DNA from: a virus
Direction: 5' to 3' (one strand)
IMG/VR virus record: IMGVR_UViG_3300042988_000227
Coordinates: 1 to 20,256 of that record
Length of the DNA stretch: 20,256 nt
Shown here: one piece after another, positions 3,098 through 20,256 of the stretch
How the letters are laid out: each line of letters opens with the position of its first letter
Position numbering within the stretch: position 1 is the first letter of the stretch
Position numbers and translations under genes: made by a program
Notes under the pieces: model-generated
Databases searched by the model: none
What the model saw: the letters and a program-made list of their open reading frames with translations, nothing else
What the model was told of the DNA's origin: nothing

Positions 3098-3406
3098 ATG
3101 TTCGATCTCGCCGCCGCCGCCTGCAACGCCTCCGTGCTGTCCACCATGGGCCGCACGGTGACGGTGTCGGTTGGCGGCGTCGAAACGGTGCTGACCGGGG
3201 TCTACACGGCGCCGTTCGCTTCCGGCATCGACCAGGGCACGTCCTACCAGCGGCCGGACCACTCGGTGCTGTTCCTATCCGACGAGTTCGCGGATACCGG
3301 CGCGGCCGAGGGTGATCTGGTTTCGATCGGAGACCGGGATTTCTACATCGCCGACATCGCCGTCGATGATGGCGGCATGACCAACGTGACGCTGAGGGCC
3401 ACCTGA
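3098..3406 (+). CDS. Head-tail joining protein, lambda FII-like
   Basis: This 102-residue protein lies one base after the decoration gene and before the protein Z-like and terminator genes, the normal slot of the head completion protein that joins capsid to tail. The second half has the pattern of the FII/Phage_attach group: a PDHSVLFL strand, DEFADTGAAEGDLVSI, DRDFYIADI and a final VTLRAT strand. The N-terminal helix MFDLAAAACNASVLS also fits. Similarity is by pattern only, so another small neck protein cannot be excluded. The stop overlaps the next start (TGATG). Confidence 0.65.
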   Translation: MFDLAAAACNASVLSTMGRTVTVSVGGVETVLTGVYTAPFASGIDQGTSYQRPDHSVLFLSDEFADTGAAEGDLVSIGDRDFYIADIAVDDGGMTNVTLRAT

Positions 3407-3972
3407 TGGCTGTCGCCGCGACCATCGATGTCAACGGACTCGAAAAGCTGCGCGCTGCGCTGGCCGAGATGCCGCTGCAGGCGATGCGGGCCGCCAAGCG
3501 GGCCAACCGCAAGGCCGCGACCTATGCCGAGGGACGGTTCGCGAAGCATCTGTCCGCGAAGTCCGGCATCCCGCAGAACATCCTGCGATCGCATGAAGAG
3601 CGAGGCCGGAAGGTCGGGCGCGTGCGGACCTACCTCTCCGACGACGGTCCGGGCGCCTACAAGGTTTGGCTCGGTTACAACCCGCTGAAGGCCGCCTACA
3701 TCGGCAACCTTAAGGCGGACGAGTCCGGCGCCTGGGCGCGCGAATACTACTGGGCGGGCGCGTTCATCGCGCAGTTTGCGAGCGGTCACCGCGGAATTTT
3801 CAAGCGGGGCACCACGCGCACCGCCTCGGGCCGGCTGGCACTGGTCGAGCAGGTGGTGATGTTCCCGTATGGCACCGAGATCGCTGACGCCGTTGCCACC
3901 GAGACGCTGGACCGGCTCGGCACGCTGATCGATCAGGAGCTCAAGTACGAGATGAGCAAGGCCAATGGCTAG
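3406..3972 (+). CDS. Minor tail protein Z-like (GPZ family)
   Basis: At 188 residues this has the size and order of lambda gpZ-type proteins, which act at the neck when tail meets head. Visible features are an N-terminal region starting DVNGLEKLRAAL, then a basic helix (MRAAKRANRKAATYAEGRFAK) like the 'all tail-completion' helix AxxRAxNrtA of the family. A central WLGYNPLKAAYIG strand pair follows, then GIFKR, a pattern I associate with prophage minor tail protein Z. The C-terminal helix is acidic. It overlaps the terminator gene by 8 bases, implying coupled translation. Confidence 0.75.
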   Translation: MAVAATIDVNGLEKLRAALAEMPLQAMRAAKRANRKAATYAEGRFAKHLSAKSGIPQNILRSHEERGRKVGRVRTYLSDDGPGAYKVWLGYNPLKAAYIGNLKADESGAWAREYYWAGAFIAQFASGHRGIFKRGTTRTASGRLALVEQVVMFPYGTEIADAVATETLDRLGTLIDQELKYEMSKANG

Positions 3973-18900: not shown

Positions 18901-19495
18901 CTTCGTGCACGACAAGATCTACTTCGAGCGATTGAAGGCGGACTACCATGTCGTTGGTGAGCCGGGCTGGCACGACTACGCCTACACGGCGACTCATACC
19001 TATCAGCTATGCAGCAGCGATGCTGTGATCTGGTCCGGCAGCGGATCGCTGGTCTACCCGGATCTACCGCCGGTCACCGACCTGTCCAAAACGCTCGGAC
19101 TGGGCCTGAAGGCGGGCTACTCCTACCTCTGGTCGATGGTGCTGGACGGGTACAGCACCACCATGCCGATCCGATCCGGCGCGACGGACTCGGGACTGTA
19201 TGCGGGCGCGTATTTCCCGAGGTCGTGGTATGCCTCGGACGCCTACGGCAACACCCTGTTCGTGTGCTACGTCCCGCGCGTCATCCTGCCCGGCGACCCG
19301 GAAAGTTCCGGCGGGATCAATTTCAGCTATCGCGGGTTTCCCAACGATTGGAACGGGCAGATGCACATGGATCAGTTCCCGGACGGCATCCAGATCGCCA
19401 GGCTGATCCGCAATGATGGCACGGTCGTGGAGCTTTCCGAGGTGTTCACCGTGCCAGGCGTCAACAAGGGCTGGAAATTCGCGGGAGTCTTCTGA
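15929..19495 (+). CDS. Central tail / baseplate protein with two long coiled coils
   Basis: This 1188-residue protein is the largest in the window. Residues 1-20 (MGRATVVSHLGDGEYLITPD) start a small beta domain. Residues 24-245 are a continuous heptad-like helix region rich in Ala, Gln and Glu. Residues 251-285 (AWCADLTETLTGAVATVEIP, then VLIRPGYEG) return to the beta domain, residues 286-403 form a second coiled coil, and residues 425-522 resume a beta domain (AVLPAWQKWRPMYRLGEI, GDTCTVMLDA, GVPIVYMECNG, AFEAGDRVVVEF). I recognise this interrupted core from phage central tail proteins. Residues 525-1188 are beta-rich and unassigned, a plausible receptor-binding part. GGAGG precedes the ATG, which overlaps the upstream stop. 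No lambda J, NlpC/P60 or peptidase signature is seen. Confidence 0.7.
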   Translation: MGRATVVSHLGDGEYLITPDPDQTYLDEEIQRLTEQLATDSPRLEAAITSETTARAALDDAQAGIDTIIREAQAANNALLLALQAAMDDLDDATTAEQNQQTAINGMVADQTAQLAVYDQAIEDLKAQLAEATTPEQRAAIQLQIDETETAKTAYELNTNTAITAAYNDLMALKATTKAKLGVVNGAQQTWNDRDQKLAEIRTAMDGAEPLKVAWYKARDDRAALQLKLAAMAHDIKWLEAKRKTPADTSAWCADLTETLTGAVATVEIPGETVGVPVLIRPGYEGRAVWQAQEQHAALVDAVLAAQDGCLSAQSLADLARLNLDAAKQRRDGAAATLALLQADPDALPALIVSAQALLEAAETTVTTAEASVTTAEQRIVTTRATATAARAALQAARDAAVADGATPDPRMADGRMQPVASSSPWASFWNRAVLPAWQKWRPMYRLGEIAELAGDTCTVMLDAAFSSQQAIDINRETELTGVPIVYMECNGDAFEAGDRVVVEFAYHDQTKPRVVGFESHPRACQAGHGIFVTPASERSPIGFGYPFTANEGWGKPGVTAASLIKASELPAPSEMGGLGFQVLIAPSGSTSKYLYGEQRRELVLRDTTILGGAVAVTGPLDASCYDQSGRLKPSARFDVYSIANNYLGPLGTWHSNYRIRQFDKALQSEGIAAMDGDTSVMLTHPRRFGMNEASPIYKNGAAMDYTISDPNHVGAHSDGYTYAPVTARHAVGLAIRNVTAGSETVRRMVALFVAGRQQFEGTIFYHHYLLAWADPPYSSFTCSQLIDINYPNFPSNRTDDNQAFPYQTRIFFQSNESGTRMSAVAGGFPPDFDSAYIDHPGTQPVYLRVIHLDIAADGKSCAIVTEPRNVVPELASIVDPWDGSDGLPPPGYSGSSEIQTVPITYAIAYDRDTEKRLTVAFSETRTASRTGAGWNYTEAYEGSTLVTFQIGGAVVQGSVTYQTVTQYVGDGGTAPTTDTSEDVALLLGVDFVHDKIYFERLKADYHVVGEPGWHDYAYTATHTYQLCSSDAVIWSGSGSLVYPDLPPVTDLSKTLGLGLKAGYSYLWSMVLDGYSTTMPIRSGATDSGLYAGAYFPRSWYASDAYGNTLFVCYVPRVILPGDPESSGGINFSYRGFPNDWNGQMHMDQFPDGIQIARLIRNDGTVVELSEVFTVPGVNKGWKFAGVF

Positions 19496-19725
19496 TGAAC
19501 GTCGACCACTTGATCGAACACCTGACCGAACCCAGCACCATCCGGGGCATCATCTGGACAGCAGGCGCCTCGCTTGCGCTGCTGTGGATACACAAGGGTG
19601 ACTACGAAGGCGCGCTGCAAGTTATCACCCAGACCGGACTTGCAGTCGGCGCGGTCGGCATGCTGACGCGGGACAAGCCCTGCGACAACGCACCGGACGA
19701 CGGGAGCGACGACGATGACGGATGA
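19495..19725 (+). CDS. Small two-span membrane protein, holin-like
   Basis: A 76-residue protein with two hydrophobic segments, residues about 14-33 (STIRGIIWTAGASLALLWIH) and 39-58 (GALQVITQTGLAVGAVGMLT), joined by a short polar turn (KGDYE). It ends in an acidic tail (DDGSDDDDG). Such short phage proteins with STIRG near the start are commonly annotated as holin-like and would form the membrane lesion that starts lysis. It follows the last tail gene with a TGATG overlap and a GGGAG site. Position supports lysis, but no endolysin is in the window to confirm it. Confidence 0.6.
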   Translation: MNVDHLIEHLTEPSTIRGIIWTAGASLALLWIHKGDYEGALQVITQTGLAVGAVGMLTRDKPCDNAPDDGSDDDDG

Positions 19726-20146
19726 CTGGGATGGGCGCGACCGGCGCCGGACGGGCGAACGACGCAGCGGCTACGACAGAAGGGGGAATGTCTTGATTGA
19801 AGAAGAGAAAGCCGCGCCAGGGTTCACCATAAACAGCTGGCAGCAGGTGCAGTCGATCCTCTACGTGCTGGTGATGCTAGTGGCCGGCATCGCCTGGGGC
19901 TTGAAGCTGGAATCGCGGATCGACCGGGCCGACGACGGCATCAAGAACGCAGAGCAGCAGCTGGCGCACGGCATTCTCCCGATCACCGAGGAGCGAATGT
20001 CGCGGATGGACACCGAAAACCGGAGACTACTCGCAGACCTTGAAGGCCTGCGCGCACAAGTCCAGAAGCTGGAACTGGAGTTCGCTGGGCATCGCAGCAA
20101 CAACGGCGGGAAAATGGCCGCGCCAGCGACCGGACGAAGGCTTTGA
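19715..20146 (+). CDS. Single-span coiled-coil membrane protein (spanin- or accessory-like)
   Basis: A 143-residue protein overlapping the holin-like gene by 11 bases, with GGGAG nine bases before the ATG. Residues 8-24 are Arg-rich (RDRRRTGERRSGYDRRG) and should stay in the cytoplasm. Residues 46-63 (QSILYVLVMLVAGIAWGL) form one membrane span, and residues 65-120 are helical and charged, consistent with a coiled coil in the periplasm. This is the layout of inner-membrane spanins, but their cytoplasmic head is usually short, so another lysis or membrane-anchored role is possible. No Rz1-like lipoprotein frame was seen inside it. Confidence 0.55.
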   Translation: MTDDWDGRDRRRTGERRSGYDRRGNVLIEEEKAAPGFTINSWQQVQSILYVLVMLVAGIAWGLKLESRIDRADDGIKNAEQQLAHGILPITEERMSRMDTENRRLLADLEGLRAQVQKLELEFAGHRSNNGGKMAAPATGRRL

Positions 20147-20170
20147 CGCGTCCGCGCGTGCTGGTATAAT
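20143..20170 (+). promoter_or_regulatory. Strong sigma70-type promoter with extended -10
   Basis: TTGACG (20143-20148) and TATAAT (20165-20170) are separated by 16 bases. The -10 is fully consensus, the -35 matches five of six, and TGG at 20162-20164 makes an extended -10. It begins inside the last codons of the spanin-like gene and points rightward. It is the only near-consensus promoter I see in the window and would start transcription near 20177, uncoupling downstream sequence from the late operon. Confidence 0.75.
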
Positions 20171-20176
20171 TCACGC

Positions 20177-20256
20177 ACCTATCGGATGGCTCGCCATGCG
20201 AGATGGTCCCCGCGGCTAACCCCGCGGCCAGGGGGAGGACCCTGGGTCTCTGGGCC
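20177..20256 (+). ncRNA. Candidate structured RNA, cut by the window edge
   Basis: Directly after the promoter, three consecutive hairpins can form: 20190-20194 with 20198-20202 (5 bp, loop CAT), 20210-20215 with 20222-20227 (CCGCGG self-complement, 6 bp, loop CTAACC), and 20228-20233 with 20240-20245 (6 bp, loop GGAGGA). The start site is estimated at seven bases past the -10. The only closed ORF is a seven-codon ATG at 20196 (MRDGPRG, stop at 20217), so a leader peptide is an alternative. I do not recognise the RNA; a 5' leader of a downstream gene is equally possible. Confidence 0.35.

What the first reader, a model, noticed from the sequence alone, without database searches (positions are those of the whole stretch)
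20143..20256. Near-consensus promoter driving a hairpin-rich transcript at the right end
TTGACG-16-TATAAT with TGG before the -10 should be strong even without phage factors, unlike the late operon it follows. The transcript begins with three adjacent GC hairpins, the third showing GGAGGA in its loop. It may be a small RNA expressed from the prophage, a regulatory leader hiding a ribosome binding site, or the promoter of a lysogenic-conversion gene.
Basis: partly seen in the sequence, partly recalled or inferred. Interest (0 to 1): 0.7.

Follow-up and report, generated by a model that had tools for sequence, protein, structure and literature searches.

The report
Phage small-RNA gene beside integration site
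The right end of this phage fragment carries a very strong promoter for a short structured RNA, and a sister phage shows that it stops about 177 bases later, just before the site where the phage inserts into its host; it is probably an untested small regulatory RNA made while the phage is dormant.

Summary
TTGACG-16-TATAAT with an extended -10 TGG lies at 20143-20170 and is the only 11/12 promoter match in the window; none arose in 1 Mb of Markov sequence. Three adjacent hairpins follow, the third with GGAGGA in its loop. They are only modestly unusual for such GC-rich DNA.

The window is a whole IMG/VR record and is cut 80 nt into the transcript. A sister contig (L002) carries the same late genes and runs on. 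There the transcript is about 177 nt and ends at a strong U7 terminator. The 3' part of a tRNA-Arg(CCU) gene follows (likely attP), then integrase on the opposite strand, then excisionase; DnaN and a CI/Cro-like pair lie further on.

No credible ORF lies in the unit, and no start codon lies within 31 nt after GGAGGA, so a leader hiding an RBS or a conversion gene is not supported. Promoter plus RNA differ at 1 of 110 positions between the two phages, against 28 of 144 third codon positions next door. No Rfam family and no third homologue were found. Best reading: a prophage-borne small RNA gene in the late operon's 3' end, with its own promoter. Its target and mechanism are unknown.

The parts
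20143..20148 (+). -35 element TTGACG, overlapping the TGA stop codon of the last late gene
   Evidence: identical in L002 4429-4434
20162..20170 (+). extended -10 TGG-TATAAT
   Evidence: identical in L002
20177..20256 (+). 5' 80 nt of the predicted small RNA (cut by the end of the record; the unit runs to about 177 nt in sister L002 4463-4639)
   Evidence: predicted start, not measured
20190..20202 (+). hairpin 1, CTCGC-CAT-GCGAG
20204..20209 (+). 5' arm (TGGTCC) of a stem predicted to enclose hairpins 2 and 3; partner GGGCC(A) at 20252-20256 plus one base beyond the record
   Evidence: predicted on L002
20210..20227 (+). hairpin 2, CCGCGG-CTAACC-CCGCGG
20228..20245 (+). hairpin 3, CCAGGG-GGAGGA-CCCTGG (GGAGGA loop at 20234-20239)
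19715..20146 (+). last late gene, 143 aa, no family match; its stop codon lies inside the -35 and no terminator separates it from the RNA
19495..19725 (+). 76-aa gene before it (holin-like in size and position; no family match)

Best explanation
It is an independent small-RNA gene of a temperate phage. It sits between the end of the late operon and attP, so it would lie at one edge of the integrated prophage. A near-consensus host sigma-70 promoter starts an RNA of about 177 nt at about 20177. The RNA folds into hairpins and ends at a strong intrinsic terminator (stem CCCGC/GCGGG, U7), as seen in the sister. Because no terminator precedes the promoter, that terminator should also end the late operon, so the RNA can be made alone in the lysogen and as the 3' end of late mRNA during lytic growth. 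Most likely it acts in trans by base pairing of its unpaired loops (CUAACC, GGAGGA, AUCUCU) with host or phage mRNAs, possibly with Hfq, since an AAGAGAA stretch precedes the U7 terminator. Shown by sequence: promoter match, unit boundaries in the sister, absence of a credible ORF, conservation between two phages, position next to a tRNA-derived site and integrase. Inferred: transcription, activity in the lysogen, use of Hfq, and pairing in trans.
For: Promoter far beyond chance. Complete promoter-to-terminator unit in L002 4429-4639. Promoter plus RNA differ at 1/110 positions against 28/144 third codon positions of the adjacent gene (Fisher p 6e-7) and 60/652 over the two adjacent genes (p 0.001); the 110-nt identical run is the second longest in 12.7 kb of aligned DNA. 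Temperate context: integrase, excisionase-like HTH, CI/Cro-like HTH proteins; attP-like tRNA-Arg(CCU) segment at L002 4727-4782, also present at the edge of another phage contig, L036. The phage's putative pR has the same -35 TTTGACG, and its palindromic operator TTCACGATTCGTGGA is not in the sRNA promoter. Prophage sRNAs beside late or tail genes and near tRNAs are a known pattern (PMC13192938; PMC4104026).
Against: No transcript was observed. Only two copies are known, so there is no covariation. Apart from the terminator the RNA folds no better than shuffles. Two other places in the 12 kb alignment, both in or around coding sequence, are as well conserved, so the conservation could reflect recent exchange. 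No pairing with this phage's own start regions exceeds shuffled controls.
Confidence: 0.6

Rival explanations
1. A transcriptional boundary element: promoter and terminator matter (ending the late operon, or keeping the attP/prophage edge transcribed or insulated), and the RNA between them has no function of its own; its 3' part may instead belong to an attP arm.
For: The terminator is the first one after the late operon. attP lies about 90 nt further on. The RNA body folds no better than shuffles.
Against: A boundary needs no near-consensus promoter. The RNA body, not only promoter and terminator, is conserved in its first 80 nt.
Confidence: 0.2
2. An mRNA for a very small protein: a 35-codon frame starting at AUG L002 4489 (window 20203) ends in TAG before the terminator.
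For: The frame is complete within the unit.
Against: The AUG lies between two stems with no Shine-Dalgarno in front of it; GGAGGA lies inside the frame, not before it. The single difference between the phages changes an amino acid (Asp to Gly). The residues are low-complexity, as expected of GC-rich DNA.
Confidence: 0.08
3. The promoter of a lysogenic-conversion or defence gene in the window's own phage, beyond 20256, unlike the sister.
For: The place after the tail genes carries cargo in a distant relative: L035 has HsdM, an Abi_2 protein and HsdS there. The window ends at 20256.
Against: The sister, with the same promoter and 79 of the same 80 RNA bases, ends at a terminator with no gene.
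Confidence: 0.1

Closest known systems
AgvB / AsxR (EcOnc01, EcOnc02) anti-sRNAs of E. coli O157 lambdoid prophages
   Same: Prophage-borne sRNA genes at a fixed intergenic spot of the phage genome (PMC4104026).
   Different: Those are 51-60 nt, lie at the moron site after PR', bind Hfq in experiments and share a conserved 3' part; this one is about 177 nt, lies beside attP, and is untested.
IpeX of cryptic prophage DLP12 (167 nt)
   Same: Prophage sRNA of similar length (PMC12197685, Table 1).
   Different: Listed there as regulating ompC in E. coli; no sequence relation was found (the Rfam scans gave no match at gathering score).
Pas sRNAs of pathogenic E. coli prophages
   Same: sRNA genes next to tail or capsid genes and near tRNA genes (PMC13192938).
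   Different: A different host group; no sequence relation was established.
RsmX/CsrB-type protein-sequestering RNAs
   Same: One hairpin shows GGA motifs in its loop; a sub-threshold Rfam match to rsmX (22.4 bits, gathering 56).
   Different: Only one GGA-loop hairpin, not a series; the strong part of that match is the generic terminator.

Membership tests
Prophage-encoded small RNA gene (general kind) | own promoter and terminator enclosing a short unit without a credible ORF | tested here: met
   L002 4429-4639; in the window only the first 80 nt of RNA are visible
Prophage-encoded small RNA gene (general kind) | located in a temperate phage | tested here: met
   integrase, excisionase-like and CI/Cro-like proteins, tRNA-derived attP
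Prophage-encoded small RNA gene (general kind) | a discrete transcript is made | not testable with these tools
   needs RNA sequencing
Any Rfam family (release 15) | score at or above the gathering threshold | tested here: not met
   none; the sub-threshold istR, rsmX and isrK matches on L002 rest mainly on the generic terminator
CsrB/RsmX-type sequestering RNA | multiple hairpins with GGA in the loop | tested here: not met
   only hairpin 3 of the predicted fold has GGA in its loop
Translational leader with a sequestered ribosome binding site | start codon 5-12 nt after the Shine-Dalgarno-like GGAGGA | tested here: not met
   next ATG/GTG/TTG begins 32 nt after GGAGGA in L002
Hfq-dependent sRNA | terminator with a long U tail and a nearby A-R-N stretch | tested here: met
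   U7 and AAGAGAA in L002 4611-4639; compatible sequence only, binding untested

The most novel reading that the evidence does not exclude
A new family of phage regulatory RNA, unrelated to any described one, carried at the prophage edge. Its multi-hairpin domain with a GGAGGA loop binds a host RNA or RNA-binding protein and changes host physiology during lysogeny.
Probability: 0.2. Interest if true: 0.6.

Novelty: new member of a known kind. Interest (0 to 1): 0.38.

Why it matters
Small RNAs of phages outside the well-studied enteric hosts are mostly found by RNA sequencing of lysogens, which is impossible for uncultured phages. Here a strong promoter, a terminator and conservation between two metagenomic phages define such a gene from DNA alone, and its place beside attP suggests lysogen-time expression. 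Its target is unknown, so the importance is modest until it is tested.

Tried and rejected
Exact-pattern scans for four segments of the locus (hairpin 2 in viral and genome collections, hairpin 3 and a 3' segment in viral contigs, the tRNA segment in genome and viral contigs) gave no further sRNA copy. The second hairpin-3 match, L030, is a proline-rich coding sequence and was rejected. blastn at low stringency in phages and plasmids matched only the generic terminator or short chance stretches. A covariance model from the two copies found only weak hits inside or across long open frames of the same phages, judged chance. Protein queries for the 76-aa and 143-aa genes returned only the sister contig. 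Complementarity to start regions of the phage's own ORFs was no better than shuffled RNA once the antisense self-match was set aside. The host could not be named: the tRNA-Arg segment has no exact match in genome contigs, and species genomes could not be searched from a virus record. The GGAGGA loop as a hidden ribosome binding site was rejected. An exact copy of the putative CI operator in the promoter was sought and not found.

Full report
What is there. The window is a complete IMG/VR record of 20,256 bases, so its right end is a contig end and not a biological end. It holds the late genes of a tailed phage: head/protease (Pfam Phage_capsid_4, Peptidase_S78), tape measure, a 1188-aa tail-region protein, then a 76-aa and a 143-aa gene without family matches. 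The stop codon of the 143-aa gene (TGA, 20144-20146) lies inside the -35 hexamer TTGACG. It is the only site with at least 10 of 12 matches on either strand, and 1 Mb of first-order Markov sequence of the same composition held no 11/12 site.

The hairpins. Three perfect stems follow in the 80 nt that remain. For DNA of 71% G+C this is only mildly unusual: 18 of 3000 dinucleotide shuffles and 16 of 4020 overlapping 80-mers of the window have three such stems in tandem. The folding energy has z -0.67. The hairpins alone are therefore weak evidence of a structured RNA.

The sister phage. One contig in IMG/VR, IMGVR_UViG_3300042988_000477 (25,577 bases; L002, L028, L029), encodes relatives of both last genes (93% and 91% identity) and carries the same promoter and RNA. 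It shows what the window cannot. The RNA runs on to AAGAGAACCCGCTCCGGCGGGTTTTTTT, an intrinsic terminator with seven T, ending about 177 nt after the predicted start. This terminator is of a common phage type: its sequence alone matches those of phage T1 and others. About 90 nt further lies the 3' part of a tRNA-Arg(CCU) gene (identified by eye; ARAGORN finds no complete tRNA), and then, on the opposite strand, a tyrosine integrase and an excisionase-like protein, a DnaN clamp, a dNMP kinase and, at the contig's end, a CI/Cro-like pair. The same tRNA segment sits at the edge of another phage contig, L036, with different genes beside it, which supports its reading as an attachment site. Pseudomonas phage PMG1, whose integrase is about 42% identical, has the same order of late genes, attP and integrase on the opposite strand.

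Conservation. From 20147 to the end the two phages differ at 1 of 110 positions. The adjacent 143-aa gene differs at 28 of 144 third codon positions (Fisher p 6e-7), and the two last genes together at 60 of 652 positions (p 0.001). The 110-base identical run starts at 20136, just before the -35; it is the second longest in 12.7 kb of aligned DNA. Only three places in that alignment have a 110-nt stretch with at most one difference. This favours constraint on promoter and RNA, but recent exchange of a short segment is not excluded, since one other 111-nt identical run exists. The single difference, A to G at 20246, lies at an unpaired position, so there is no covariation evidence for or against the stems.

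No coding or leader function visible. In the sister no credible ORF lies between promoter and terminator. The longest frame that closes before the terminator has 35 codons and starts without a Shine-Dalgarno; a longer frame (65 codons) starts 9 nt from the predicted 5' end without one and runs through the terminator. After GGAGGA the first ATG, GTG or TTG begins 32 nt downstream. A hidden ribosome binding site is thus not supported.

How it most likely works. No terminator lies between the late genes and the promoter, so the RNA should be made in two ways: alone, from its own promoter, in the lysogen, and as the 3' end of late mRNA in lytic growth. The putative pR of this phage uses the same TTTGACG -35. 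The palindrome in front of cro (TTCACGATTCGTGGA), the likely repressor site, does not occur in the sRNA promoter, which shares only the half-site-like TTCACG. Expression in the lysogen is therefore expected but inferred. Action in trans by pairing is the commonest mode of such RNAs and is the working hypothesis. Pairing with this phage's own start regions is no better than chance, which points, weakly, to host targets.

Relation to known kinds. No Rfam family matches at gathering score (none near threshold). Prophage sRNAs at fixed places near tail genes, tRNAs or moron sites are known (AgvB/AsxR, PMC4104026; Pas RNAs, PMC13192938; table of phage sRNAs, PMC12197685). This locus works like those as far as anatomy shows, with no sequence relation to any of them. 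It is best called a new member of a known kind, with function inferred.

Limits. Two copies only; no transcript data; the host is unknown; the window's own sequence after 20256 is unseen and is taken from the sister.

Noticed in passing
L002 6549-7658 (-): The sister phage encodes its own complete DNA polymerase III beta clamp (all three Pfam domains) between integrase and repressor.
   Followed up: partly
L035 8858-12912 (+): In a distant relative the place after the tail gene carries a type I HsdM, an Abi_2 protein and an HsdS-like protein, so this end of the phage looks like a cargo site for defence genes.
   Followed up: partly
L036 8078-8126: Another phage contig ends in the same tRNA-Arg(CCU) 3' segment, apparently the same attachment site used by a different phage.
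   Followed up: partly
L002 6027-6347 (-): Weak match to restriction alleviation protein Lar (26 bits, cut-off 28.6) next to the excisionase-like gene.
   Followed up: no
window 3364-3474: The longest identical run (111 nt) between the two phages lies in the 3' end of the 102-aa frame at 3098-3406 and the start of the 188-aa frame after it, perhaps a patch of recent exchange.
   Followed up: no
L029 11205-11265: Putative pR/operator region between CI-like and Cro-like genes, with ATTCGTGGAT repeated and TTTGACG as -35.
   Followed up: partly
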